Below, in pieces: positions 9,213 through 39,452 of a stretch of 44,237 nt of DNA (the stretch's first letter is position 1; each line of letters starts with the position of its first letter). The stretch is from Atribacterota bacterium (GTDB lineage Bacteria; Atribacterota; Phoenicimicrobiia; Phoenicimicrobiales; Stramentimicrobiaceae). The position numbers were made by a program, and so were the translations under genes. The stretch lies in assembly GCA_028717805.1 (NCBI GenBank), contig JAQUNC010000017.1, positions 1 to 44,237 of the forward strand, given 5' to 3'. Under the pieces are notes generated by a model. It ran no database searches. It worked only from the letters and a program-made list of their open reading frames with translations, and was not told where the DNA came from.

Positions 9213-9593
9213 TTAGCAGATAGCAATGGCTTCCATTTCAATTTTTGCTCCCTTTGGTAAATTAGGTACTTCAACACATACTCGCGCCGGTAAACTGGTA
9301 TTAAAATATTCCGAATAAATCTTATTTATGCTATCAAAATCTTTCATATCTGTAATAAAAATAGTAACCTTTAAAACATTTTGCAAAGAACTTCCAGCAG
9401 CCTCTAAAATTGCTTTGATATTCTCAATCACTTGCTTTGTTTGGCTGGTAATATTGCCGTTCACGAACTCATTGCTATCCGGATTAATAGCGATTTGTCC
9501 AGAAACAAAAACCAAATTATTAAATTTAATTGCTTGTGAATAAGGACCAATAGCGGATGGAGCCTTTTTGGTATTTATAATCTTTCGACTTAT
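9213..9593 (-). CDS. ridA: RidA/YjgF family enamine/imine deaminase, apparent ATA start
   Basis: Read from an ATA codon at 9591-9593, the frame gives 126 residues beginning (M)SRKIINTKKAPSAIGPYSQ, the exact N-terminal pattern of RidA proteins and the family's normal length. The C-terminal part keeps the conserved arginine (PARVCVEV) and the KIEMEAIA end. RidA hydrolyses reactive enamines and imines released by PLP enzymes and amino-acid oxidases, which fits this cluster. An in-frame TAA abuts the ATA, and no ATG, GTG or TTG occurs in frame before the family N-terminus. The first canonical codon is a TTG at 9513-9515, which would delete 26 conserved residues. GGAAGG lies about 11 bases before the ATA. 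It is either a non-canonical start or a start-codon mutation. Confidence 0.8.
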   Translation of the reverse strand: MSRKIINTKKAPSAIGPYSQAIKFNNLVFVSGQIAINPDSNEFVNGNITSQTKQVIENIKAILEAAGSSLQNVLKVTIFITDMKDFDSINKIYSEYFNTSLPARVCVEVPNLPKGAKIEMEAIAIC

Positions 9594-9619: not shown

Positions 9620-10303
9620 TTAAAGTAATTTTTTCTCACTATCATGTTCTGGTTTTATTTCAGCAAGATAATTATAGATTGTAAAACGGGAAACATTTAA
9701 TTTTTCAGCCAATCGATCAATGGCATCTTTTACTAAAAATATTCCATGTTTCTGTAAATATCGAACCATTTCTATTTTATCTTCTTTTTGCATTTTATTT
9801 ATTTCTTTTCCTATCCTCTGTTGAGCTTTAGAAAATAATCGTTCCATCAAATCATCCAGGGAATGGGAAAAGGATTCTTCTCTTTCTTCCTTTATAATAT
9901 TTTCTACACTATTCAAATTATTATTGACATTACAAAATTCATCTATTTCCCTGGAAATATTTATCATTGGTTCTATATTAAAATTAATGCATAAAAAACC
10001 AACAATTTTTCTATTGTTATCACGAATAAAAATACTTGTGGATTTTAACTTTTTTCCATCTTTACTTTCTGTTTGATAACTAGCTACATAATCAATGTCA
10101 TTAAAGAGATCTGAGGTTAGAAAATATAAACCTAAATCAGTCATGGGTGCTCCAACTTGTCGTCCGGTTATATGTCCATTTTCAATTAATACTATGGAAT
10201 GCTCAAGATCTTGTACATCATGAAGGATAACTTCACAATTTTTTCCAAAAGCCCGGGCAATACCCTTGGCTACTGGAACAAATTTTTCCAGGATAGGATT
10301 CAT
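9620..10303 (-). CDS. YheO/DauR-like transcriptional regulator
   Basis: This 227-residue protein has an N-terminal YheO-like PAS domain (about residues 1-115; note CEVILHDVQDLEHSIV and SIFIRDNNRKIVGFLCINF) followed by a linker and a C-terminal helix-turn-helix (about residues 170-215, with VKDAIDRLAEKLNVSRFTIY). In the founding examples, such as DauR, these regulators control D-amino-acid catabolism, and RidA genes are often next to them. Here it lies 26 bases upstream of ridA on the same strand and heads the amino-acid cluster, so it is the likely regulator of it. A good promoter is visible at 10447-10475. The inducing ligand is unknown. Confidence 0.82.
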   Translation of the reverse strand: MNPILEKFVPVAKGIARAFGKNCEVILHDVQDLEHSIVLIENGHITGRQVGAPMTDLGLYFLTSDLFNDIDYVASYQTESKDGKKLKSTSIFIRDNNRKIVGFLCINFNIEPMINISREIDEFCNVNNNLNSVENIIKEEREESFSHSLDDLMERLFSKAQQRIGKEINKMQKEDKIEMVRYLQKHGIFLVKDAIDRLAEKLNVSRFTIYNYLAEIKPEHDSEKKLL

Positions 10304-11369: not shown

Positions 11370-12254
11370 CTATTCCTCCAGTAATCCAAATCTCTTCAAA
11401 TCTTCTTTTAATTTTTTAAAATTATTCTCCTCCATATCTACTAAAGGAAGGCGCAGGTCTCCTGCTGGTAATCCTATTAAGCGGGCTGCAGTTTTTACCG
11501 GAATAGGATTAGTTTCATAAAACATGACACGACTTAAGGGGTAAACTACTTTCTGGAATATTTCCAGTGCCTCTTGAGAATTTCCTTCCAGATATGCCTT
11601 AATCATAGAGGAAACCTTATCCGGTATGATATTGGCTACTACTGAAATAACACCTTTCCCTCCAATAGACATTACTGGAGGAATAATCTTATCATCTCCA
11701 GATAATAGAGTTATCTTATCTCCACAAAGGTACATTATTTCAGCCATCTGCTCCAGATTACCGCTAGCTTCTTTTACAGCTACAATATTTTTAAGCTCAG
11801 CTAATTCAGCCAGGGTAGAGGGTAATAGATTTACACCGGCACGAGAAGGTATATTATAGATAATCGCCGGAATATCAATCTGTTCTACAATAGTCTTAAA
11901 ATGTATATAAAGACCTCTCTGAGTTGGTTTATTGTAATAAGGCACCACCAACAACACTCCGTTAGAGCCCATATCCCGAGCACTAGCAGTGAGGTCTAGG
12001 GTCTCAGCAGTAGAATTAGAACCAGTGCCTGCAATTACCGGTACCCTGCCTGCAACTGCTTTAATAGTTAATTCAATTACCTTCTTATGCTCCTCATGTG
12101 TAAGAGTGGGGGATTCACCCGTTGTCCCACATGGTACAATAGCATTAGTCCCATTATTAATGTGAAACTCTACTAATTTTTTAATCCCCTTCTCATCAAT
12201 TTGATTGTGCTCATCAAAGGGAGTAATCAGAGCCACAATCGAACCACTAAACAT
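11370..12254 (-). CDS. dapA: 4-hydroxy-tetrahydrodipicolinate synthase
   Basis: This 294-residue enzyme condenses aspartate semialdehyde with pyruvate, the first committed step to diaminopimelate and lysine. The catalytic tyrosine is Tyr133 in IIYNIPSRAG and the Schiff-base lysine is Lys161 in VAVKEASGN. The GTTGES loop (residues 43-48) supplies the threonine pair of the catalytic triad. AAGGAGG stands before the ATG. It follows lysC and precedes dapB on the same strand with very short gaps. The DapA-like protein at 7218-8126 lacks this operon context and is probably catabolic. Confidence 0.95.
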   Translation of the reverse strand: MFSGSIVALITPFDEHNQIDEKGIKKLVEFHINNGTNAIVPCGTTGESPTLTHEEHKKVIELTIKAVAGRVPVIAGTGSNSTAETLDLTASARDMGSNGVLLVVPYYNKPTQRGLYIHFKTIVEQIDIPAIIYNIPSRAGVNLLPSTLAELAELKNIVAVKEASGNLEQMAEIMYLCGDKITLLSGDDKIIPPVMSIGGKGVISVVANIIPDKVSSMIKAYLEGNSQEALEIFQKVVYPLSRVMFYETNPIPVKTAARLIGLPAGDLRLPLVDMEENNFKKLKEDLKRFGLLEE

Positions 12255-12297: not shown

Positions 12298-13563
12298 TCA
12301 CTTAGATAATTTACTCTCACCCCTTTCTCTATCATCAATAGTGTCCATTTGCATCAGAGAACTACTGATTAGCTTATAGACAATATCTTTATTTTGCCAA
12401 TCAACAAACAACAGGATATCAGTTTTCATAGTTGATATTTCCAGGATGTTAATATAATTTTGCGCTAAGGGTCTGGTTATTCTTTCAATAATTCCAGGTG
12501 TTTCAATAAAATTTCTACTACTCAATATTAATAAGACAATATCTTTTTTTAATGAGACCGATTTTAATAAATCATTTTTTAAAATAATGGGATGTACTAA
12601 ATCGTAAGCTTTCTTAGCATATTGCTCCAGCAAATATATACCAATGTAGCTTCTGCCAGTGGCAATTCCCTGTATGCTGATTCTATGCTTTGCCAGAGGA
12701 GTTATAATTTCTTTTAGCAGACCAGGAGTTTCCAGAATTTGAGTTCCAATAACTGTAAGCAAACAAAGTTTATCCGAGAAAATTTTAATTATACTGGTAA
12801 AGCTACCCTCTATTTCAGTGCCATTAGAATCCAGGTCTCCATTCTGAAAATTAATTATCTTCGCTTTCATCTTTCCTTCCTTAAAATATAATGCTCTGGG
12901 ATGGAGAACTTTTGCGCCACCTTCTGCCAGTATTCCCATCTCTTCTACGCTTATTCTGGGTAAGGTTTTAACCTTTTTTATCAAACGAGGATCGGCAGAA
13001 GCAACTCCTGATGTATCTGTGACAATAATAACCTCATCGGCATTGACAAAACTACCTAAGGCAAAAGCAGTAATATCACTTCCTCCTCTACCCAGACAGG
13101 TGATGCTTCCGCCATCGATGCTACGGCCTAAAAAACCACATATCACAGGAACAATTCCCTCTCTTAATAATGGCTCCATATATTTTTGACATTGCTCTTT
13201 ACTTTTTTCTGGTATAATATTTGCCTCCATTAAATTTTCTGCATCAGTAATGAGAGGAAAATCAGCTCTGATAGGATCAAAAACAAAAGTCTTTATCCCA
13301 TTTGCTTTTAAAGCGGTAAACATTAGTCTGGCACTCATTCTCTCCCCAAAGGAGACAAATTCGCTATAATCCTGTCTATCGTAACCAGACTTGGTAACTC
13401 CACTCAGTAAAGATATCAGGTAATCTGTAGTATCGCCCATAGCAGAGACAACGACCAATACTTCATTTCCATTTCTCAATTTTTTAATAACTGATTGAGT
13501 GGCTTTTTCTATTCTTTCTGTATTTTGAATACTTGTTCCTCCGAATTTTACAACAACTCTTAT
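12298..13563 (-). CDS. lysC: Aspartate kinase, apparent ATA start
   Basis: This enzyme phosphorylates aspartate at the entry to the lysine pathway. Read from ATA at 13561-13563 the product is 421 residues starting (M)RVVVKFGGTSIQNTE, which matches the normal aspartokinase N-terminus. The kinase domain continues through CLGRGGSDITAFALG and VTDTSGVASADPR. Two C-terminal ACT domains begin near TVIGTQILETPG and would bind the feedback inhibitor. Between the in-frame TAA (13588-13590) and the KFGGTS motif no ATG, GTG or TTG exists. The frame reads ATA ATA AGA GAG GCG ATT ATT ATA AGA. The first canonical codon is a TTG near 13479 that would remove the ATP-binding motif. GAGAGG sits 8 bases before the third ATA. 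A non-canonical start is the simplest reading. Confidence 0.88.
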   Translation of the reverse strand: MRVVVKFGGTSIQNTERIEKATQSVIKKLRNGNEVLVVVSAMGDTTDYLISLLSGVTKSGYDRQDYSEFVSFGERMSARLMFTALKANGIKTFVFDPIRADFPLITDAENLMEANIIPEKSKEQCQKYMEPLLREGIVPVICGFLGRSIDGGSITCLGRGGSDITAFALGSFVNADEVIIVTDTSGVASADPRLIKKVKTLPRISVEEMGILAEGGAKVLHPRALYFKEGKMKAKIINFQNGDLDSNGTEIEGSFTSIIKIFSDKLCLLTVIGTQILETPGLLKEIITPLAKHRISIQGIATGRSYIGIYLLEQYAKKAYDLVHPIILKNDLLKSVSLKKDIVLLILSSRNFIETPGIIERITRPLAQNYINILEISTMKTDILLFVDWQNKDIVYKLISSSLMQMDTIDDRERGESKLSK

Positions 13564-13631
13564 AATAATCGCCTCTCTTATTATTTTTTAAACTATTAGC
13601 TATTTATTTATTACTAAAATGGGAAGGTATT

Positions 13632-17269: not shown

Positions 17270-17456
17270 CGATGAGATAGCGCACCACCTAAGAACGGGA
17301 GTTTTCTTAGGTGACAGTGCTATGGTTGTTAACCATAGTCCCAGCCTGGGGCTTAGAGCATCGGCTCCAGACTTCGGCGAAGATCCCTTTTCTGATAGTT
17401 CATCACTGCTCAGGCTACCTATCAGTACTCTTGATCGTTCGCGCCTCTACCTCACT
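17270..17456 (-). promoter_or_regulatory. Lysine riboswitch (L-box) aptamer
   Basis: The minus-strand RNA contains the hallmark L-box segments in the correct order: GTGAGGTAGAGGCGCGAA, then CAAGAGTA, then AAGGG with TCGCCGAAG, then CCAGGCTGGG, then closing CTATCTCATCG. Stem P1 is TGAGGTAG with CTATCTCA, allowing one G-T pair. This is the same architecture as the Bacillus subtilis lysC leader. A terminator follows at 17184-17224 and lysA after it. High lysine should stop transcription of the whole lysA-dapFL-lysC-dapAB operon. Confidence 0.95.
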
Positions 17457-17500
17457 TCAGATAAAAAGTGAGGCAAACCATTATTTAATTATTATTAACC

Positions 17501-38768: not shown

Positions 38769-39452
38769 CTACAGGTATTTTTCCCAGTTAAATAAGGTAT
38801 AAAGGCATTCCTGATACATCTGTAGGCGATAGCAAAAACCAGCCCAATAACCCAATTTACTCTCTTTAGTATGATGAGTTAAGCCAGACAATACCGGGTG
38901 AACTATCTTAATCCCATGATATAGAGCCAATTTAGTTAAAAATATCTCGACTCCAAATTTAGCCCAGGAAAGGTCTGGAAGAATCTGGACAAATTGCCCG
39001 GAAAGAGCTCTTTGACCATTAAGAATACTGAAGTACTTCTGTGCCAAATCAACACCGATCTGGCCACCTTTTTGAAAAATTCCTACTGTCATACCCGTAT
39101 CAGGATTGTTTTTCAGGGGATCAAGCAAAGCCTCCATATGTATTTCATTTAAATTGACAAGGTCAGCATCCAAAAACAGCCAGTAATCGGCATCACCGAT
39201 ATGAACGATACCAGTTCGCAATGCTGCCCCTTTCCCCATATTATGATCATGTCTTAATACTTCAACTGAATAACGTTCAGCACAATTGGCAGTTCCATCA
39301 GAGGAGCCATCGTCTATGACAATGATTCTCTTTGCTCTCTTATACTGACAAACTACCTCTAAAACACTGCCAATTCTGGGCTCTTCATTAAAAGCTGGTA
39401 TAAGAATAACAAGATTTTCCTTTTTCCCTTCATCTCCCTTTTTAATAATTAT
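38769..39452 (-). CDS. Family 2 glycosyltransferase with non-canonical start
   Basis: The frame opened by the TGA at 39453-39455 reads ATA ATT ATT AAA AAG, then NLVILIPAFNEEPRIG, IIVIDDGSSDGTA and LFLDADLVN. This is the N-terminal half of a GT-A fold with the nucleotide-sugar and DxD motifs. The first ATG (39237-39239) comes only after DDGSSDGT, so it would give a dead protein. No GTG or TTG occurs earlier in frame. AAAGGA lies 4 to 10 bases before the ATA/ATT codons. A start at ATA or ATT gives 225-227 residues. The C-terminal part has no membrane anchor. It may act on a lipid or polysaccharide and follows the SDR gene. Confidence 0.78.
   Translation of the reverse strand: MIIKKGDEGKKENLVILIPAFNEEPRIGSVLEVVCQYKRAKRIIVIDDGSSDGTANCAERYSVEVLRHDHNMGKGAALRTGIVHIGDADYWLFLDADLVNLNEIHMEALLDPLKNNPDTGMTVGIFQKGGQIGVDLAQKYFSILNGQRALSGQFVQILPDLSWAKFGVEIFLTKLALYHGIKIVHPVLSGLTHHTKESKLGYWAGFCYRLQMYQECLYTLFNWEKYL

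What the first reader, a model, noticed from the sequence alone, without database searches (positions are those of the whole stretch)
13479..13590. lysC has no ATG, GTG or TTG before its KFGGTS motif; ATA is at the expected start
Seen: between the in-frame TAA (13588-13590) and the ATP-binding KFGGTS motif the codons are AAA ATA ATA AGA GAG GCG ATT ATT ATA AGA GTT GTT GTA. The ATA at 13561-13563 falls exactly where aspartokinases have Met (MRVVVKFGGTS), 8 bases after GAGAGG. The gene is otherwise intact and sits in a regulated, complete operon, so it should be functional. AUA initiation is very rare in bacteria; infC uses AUU as a known exception. Two further genes in this window show the same feature.
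Basis: partly seen in the sequence, partly recalled or inferred. Interest (0 to 1): 0.65.

Follow-up and report, generated by a model that had tools for sequence, protein, structure and literature searches.

The report
Aspartokinase gene starting with AUA
In this uncultured Atribacteria bacterium the gene for aspartokinase, the first enzyme of lysine synthesis, begins with the rare start codon AUA instead of AUG, and relatives of its family use AUA or AUU at the same place, so this is a real inherited feature and probably a brake on how much enzyme is made.

Summary
No ATG, GTG or TTG lies between the in-frame TAA (13590-13588) and KFGGTS; ATA at 13563-13561 sits 8 nt after GAGAGG. It is not a sequencing error: at the homologous codon, five of six orthologues in family f1 (Candidatus Atribacteria; window included) have ATA (3) or ATT (2), one has ATG. 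The sister family f2 always has ATG there, with a like-placed Shine-Dalgarno (SD). Codons 2-35, upstream of the first canonical codon, are under purifying selection. A survey with control codons found few such genes, so the genetic code is not altered. Conserved AUA/AUU/AUC starts appeared in infC (positive control), lysC, ridA (also in this window) and cvpA; a lacI-type gene and scpB are single-genome candidates. A glycosyltransferase (38769-39452) is better explained by a frameshift. Best explanation: lysC starts at AUA; the third-position mismatch, sensed by IF3, keeps its translation low, beneath the lysine riboswitch of the operon. Precedents: infC and pcnB (AUU), S. aureus ccpN (AUA), Streptomyces sigR (GUC). 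A new member of a known kind; the down-tuning is inferred, not measured.

The parts
13561..13563 (-). ATA start codon of lysC
   Evidence: homologous codon is ATA/ATA/ATT/ATT/ATG in five f1 relatives and ATG in f2
13572..13577 (-). Shine-Dalgarno GAGAGG of lysC, 8 nt before ATA; GAGGTGAT at this place in relatives
12298..13563 (-). lysC, aspartate kinase, 421 aa read from ATA
   Evidence: NF005159 above cut-off, AA_kinase and ACT domains
13477..13479 (-). first in-frame canonical codon (TTG), downstream of KFGGTS; not a plausible start
   Evidence: codons 2-35 under purifying selection
17270..17457 (-). lysine riboswitch at the head of the operon
   Evidence: RF00168, 110.7 bits
15793..17148 (-). 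lysA, ATG start
   Evidence: TIGR01048
14899..15765 (-). dapF, ATG start
   Evidence: TIGR00652
13632..14801 (-). dapL (LL-diaminopimelate aminotransferase), ATG start; ends 68 nt before lysC
   Evidence: TIGR03540; gap
11370..12254 (-). dapA, ATG start
   Evidence: TIGR00674
10566..11366 (-). dapB, ATG start
   Evidence: TIGR00036
9213..9593 (-). ridA (Rid family hydrolase) with ATA start at 9593-9591, directly after an in-frame TAA
   Evidence: TIGR00004; relatives ATA/ATT/ATT at the same codon

Best explanation
lysC is translated from the AUA codon at 13563-13561. The initiator tRNA (anticodon CAU) pairs at the first two positions and mismatches at the third; the SD GAGAGG at optimal spacing positions the ribosome and compensates in part. 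IF3 rejects third-position mismatches, so initiation should be weak and should vary with IF3 level and growth state. Aspartokinase is thus made in lower amount than its operon neighbours, as a translational layer beneath the lysine riboswitch. Shown: the codon, its conservation as AUA/AUU within family f1, the SD, coding constraint upstream of any canonical codon, a CAU initiator tRNA. Inferred: that the codon is used, that expression is lowered, that IF3 mediates it, and that the lowering is selected. My probability that AUA is the start is about 0.9; that it serves to hold expression down, about 0.55.
For: Five of six f1 genomes lack ATG at the homologous codon and have AUA or AUU; SD spacing equals that of ATG orthologues; codons 2-35 dN 0.09-0.20 against dS 0.42-0.84 in f1 pairs (close pair G008/G009 aside); AUH-specific signal against control codons; infC, the textbook IF3-sensitive gene, is AUA in f1 and AUU in f2; CAU initiator tRNA; AUA/AUU starts give about 10% of AUG in S. 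aureus (PMC13009471) and IF3 disfavours weak third-position pairs such as AUU/CAU (PMC10158994).
Against: No expression or proteomic data. G002 has reverted to, or kept, ATG. The SD in this window has a mismatch (AGAGGCGAT) and is weaker than in relatives, so the codon is not obviously compensated here. Only one family of draft MAGs was available.
Confidence: 0.72

Rival explanations
1. The AUA/AUU start is used but neutral: near-cognate starts on some genes are tolerated by drift in this AT-rich lineage, with no regulatory role.
For: The codon flips between AUA, AUU and AUG within f1; other unrelated genes (ridA, cvpA, a lacI-type gene, scpB) also have AUH starts; the order's initiator tRNA has A29-U41.
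Against: Drift would be expected to hit many genes; 464 of 489 sampled G000 ORFs have a canonical start with an SD and AUH cases are about 1%. The state persists in lysC across at least three genera.
Confidence: 0.2
2. Translation starts at another codon: the GTG inside the SD of the relatives, an ATT just upstream, or TTG 13479.
For: Five f1 relatives have an in-frame GTG 3 codons upstream; ATT ATT precede the ATA.
Against: The GTG is GCG in the window and has no SD at normal spacing; the ATTs are 2 and 5 nt from the SD and vary (ATT ATT, ATT AAC, ATT GAC, ATT ATC); TTG 13479 would delete the conserved, selected KFGGTS segment.
Confidence: 0.06
3. Sequencing or assembly error, or a dying gene.
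For: Draft assembly of 92 contigs; reads were not available.
Against: Four other assemblies also lack ATG there and the ORF is intact and constrained.
Confidence: 0.02

Closest known systems
S. aureus ccpN (AUA, shared with B. subtilis), cvfC1 (AUU), citZ and infC (AUA) (PMC13009471)
   Same: Conserved AUA/AUU start, intact gene, SD that includes the start-proximal GGTGAT part (in the f1 relatives of lysC); infC in the same state
   Different: Those are mapped by ribosome profiling and measured with reporters; here comparison only. ccpN is a regulator; lysC is a biosynthetic enzyme in a riboswitch operon. The window's own SD has a mismatch (AGAGGCGAT).
E. coli infC and pcnB (AUU)
   Same: Third-position mismatch start codon; IF3-sensitive (infC) or translationally limited (pcnB), from general knowledge and the title cited in PMC13009471
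   Different: AUU not AUA; unrelated genes
Streptomyces sigR (GUC), repressed by IF3 (PMC5472188)
   Same: Rare start codon inside an operon sets the amount of one product relative to a neighbour
   Different: GUC, coupled to rsrA, proven by mutation; no riboswitch
Ordinary lysC of the sister family f2
   Same: Same protein, same SD position, same second codon in most
   Different: ATG start

Membership tests
Genes with a conserved non-canonical (AUA/AUU/AUC) start codon | No canonical start compatible with the conserved N-terminus | tested here: met
Genes with a conserved non-canonical (AUA/AUU/AUC) start codon | Non-canonical codon conserved in orthologues at the same position behind an SD | tested here: met
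   ATA/ATT in 5 of 6 f1 genomes
Genes with a conserved non-canonical (AUA/AUU/AUC) start codon | Initiation at that codon demonstrated (ribosome profiling, N-terminal peptide) | not testable with these tools
   no expression data held
IF3-regulated start codons (infC, sigR type) | Expression falls with IF3 and rises when the codon is made AUG | not testable with these tools
   inferred from codon type; IF3 itself present with a conserved sequence
Lineage with a reassigned or broadly relaxed start-codon rule | Non-canonical starts common genome-wide | tested here: not met
   about 1% of sampled G000 ORFs; nearly all others have canonical starts with an SD
Aspartate kinase (LysC) | Curated family model and intact catalytic domain | tested here: met
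   NF005159 420.6 bits over cut-off 379; AA_kinase, ACT domains

The most novel reading that the evidence does not exclude
Family f1 keeps a small set of AUA/AUU/AUC-initiated genes (infC, lysC, ridA, cvpA and others) whose translation is set jointly by IF3 level, helped by an initiator tRNA that lacks the usual G29-C41 pair: a start-codon regulon.
Probability: 0.15. Interest if true: 0.68.

Novelty: new member of a known kind. Interest (0 to 1): 0.42.

Why it matters
Gene finders limited to ATG/GTG/TTG would truncate this aspartokinase at TTG 13479, removing its ATP-binding motif, or extend its relatives to a GTG that belongs to the SD. A conserved AUA/AUU start on the first enzyme of the aspartate pathway would add a translational layer to riboswitch control of lysine synthesis, and it lengthens the short list of natural AUA starts with cases from Atribacteria.

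Tried and rejected
Sequencing error (rejected: relatives). GTG start (rejected: inside the SD; GCG here). Frameshift or other-frame start for lysC (no ATG in any frame in the 68-nt gap). Translational coupling to dapL (gap 66-154 nt in f1; unlikely). Structured leader (fold z-score -1.2; nothing unusual). Broadly relaxed start rule (rejected). Initiator tRNA with another anticodon (CAU in all read; the first pattern search, missed it because of A29-U41). A29-U41 initiator tRNA as sufficient cause (rejected: f2 shares it but uses ATG for lysC). Glycosyltransferase 38769-39452 as an AUA/AUU case: relative G001 starts with ATG, and the window has an ATG in another frame just upstream of the conserved part, so a frameshift is likelier. 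rho in G009/G006 (TTG start likely in G006; undecided).

Full report
Observation. Read on the minus strand, the sequence is exactly as described: TAA 13590-13588, then AAA ATA ATA AGA GAG GCG ATT ATT ATA AGA GTT GTT GTA AAA TTC GGA GGA ACA AGT. The ATA is 13563-13561, 8 nt after GAGAGG (13577-13572). The first in-frame ATG/GTG/TTG is TTG 13479, which would remove KFGGTS. The protein has an amino acid kinase domain and ACT domains and passes the NCBIfam aspartate kinase model NF005159. A lysine riboswitch (17270-17457) precedes lysA-dapF-dapL-lysC-dapA-dapB.

Relatives. The window lies in genome G000 (2.27 Mb, 92 contigs). Orthologues in the same family f1 (69-82% identical) have, at the homologous codon, ATA (G008, G009), ATT (G001, G006) and ATG (G002). 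All f2 orthologues read have ATG, and G024 (f3) has GTG. All of these sit behind an SD at about the same distance. In five f1 relatives an in-frame GTG lies inside the SD (GAGGTG or AGGTG); it has no SD of its own at normal spacing, and in the window it is GCG. Stop codons a few codons upstream in G008, G009 and G002 limit the N-terminus to this spot.

Constraint. Between f1 genomes codons 2-35, which precede any canonical codon in the window, show dN 0.09-0.20 and dS 0.42-0.84, like the remainder of the gene; the very close pair G008/G009 has too few changes to count. So this stretch is selected as protein. On the lysC tree the start codon has changed several times within f1, and the one ATG (G002) sits among ATA/ATT lineages.

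How widespread? Against about 240 f1 ORFs whose start matches a homologous ATG, only lysC and ridA showed AUA/AUU with an SD. A symmetric search for a conserved SD plus AUH codon without a canonical start of like strength found, over 156 G000 ORFs, exactly four genes: lysC, ridA, infC and cvpA. Across 400 f1 ORFs AUH codons gave 14 ORF hits (the same genes plus rho, which is doubtful), while five control codon sets gave 0-4, all neighbours of the same sites. cvpA has AUC/AUU/AUA in G000, G002, G003, G004, G006, G007, G008 and G009, where most f2 orthologues have ATG two or three codons upstream; G001 and G005 have a possible TTG. ridA is ATA, ATA, ATT, ATT in G000, G002, G009, G008; in the window a TAA directly before the ATA excludes any upstream start. 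infC is ATA in f1 and ATT in f2. A one-genome scan adds a lacI-type regulator in G000 (AUA, in-frame TGA three codons upstream) and scpB in G006 (AUU, in-frame TAG two codons upstream). Overall about 1% of sampled ORFs.

Machinery. The initiator tRNA carries anticodon CAU and IF3 is present with a conserved sequence. In f1 (except G005) and f2 the initiator tRNA has A29-U41 in place of the usual G29-C41, while those read from f4-f6 have the usual three G-C pairs. As f2 uses ATG for lysC, this cannot by itself explain the AUA. The anti-SD GGATCACCTCCTT is found in same-genus G002; the 16S gene of G000 is cut at a contig end.

Mechanism. AUA and AUU pair with CAU at two positions and mismatch at the third. 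IF3 disfavours weak third-position pairs (PMC10158994). In S. aureus AUA/AUU starts give roughly 10% of AUG, up to 30% for ccpN in rich medium (PMC13009471). In Streptomyces a GUC start on sigR is repressed by IF3 and sets stoichiometry in its operon (PMC5472188). The inferred role here is the same: low, IF3-sensitive output of aspartokinase relative to its neighbours. A neutral reading remains open.

Verdict. The finding is real and well supported by comparison. [quoted passage not shown] My searches of the held papers turned up none that describes it for aspartokinase or Atribacteria, but that library is incomplete.

Noticed in passing
9213-9593 (-): ridA also starts with ATA (9593-9591) immediately after an in-frame TAA; orthologues in G002, G008 and G009 have ATA or ATT there.
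   Followed up: yes
38769-39452 (-): Family 2 glycosyltransferase without a canonical start near its conserved N-terminus; relative G001 has ATG and the window has an ATG in another frame just upstream, so a frameshift (real or assembly) is likely.
   Followed up: partly
L054:7829-8410 (-) (G000 contig C13) and L356-L364: cvpA family gene with AUC/AUU/AUA start behind a strong SD in eight f1 genomes; most f2 orthologues have ATG 2-3 codons upstream.
   Followed up: partly
L046:6801-6877 (+) and L307-L355: The initiator tRNA of families f1 and f2 has A29-U41 instead of the highly conserved G29-C41 of the three G-C pairs; G005 (f1) and those read from f4-f6 have the usual triplet.
   Followed up: partly
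L064:3134-4153 (+): LacI-type regulator in G000 with AUA as the only plausible start (TGA three codons upstream, AGGAG SD, MREYTIKDIAE N-terminus).
   Followed up: no
L117:6195-6773 (-): scpB in G006 with AUU as the likely start, in-frame TGA TAG just upstream.
   Followed up: no
L054:13041-13577 (-): infC of G000 starts with AUA behind AAAGGAGG; an ATG directly followed by TGA (a start-stop pair) overlaps the spacer and is also seen in G002, G003, G004 but not in G006.
   Followed up: no
9620-10303 (-): YheO-like PAS plus HTH regulator gene between dapB and ridA.
   Followed up: no
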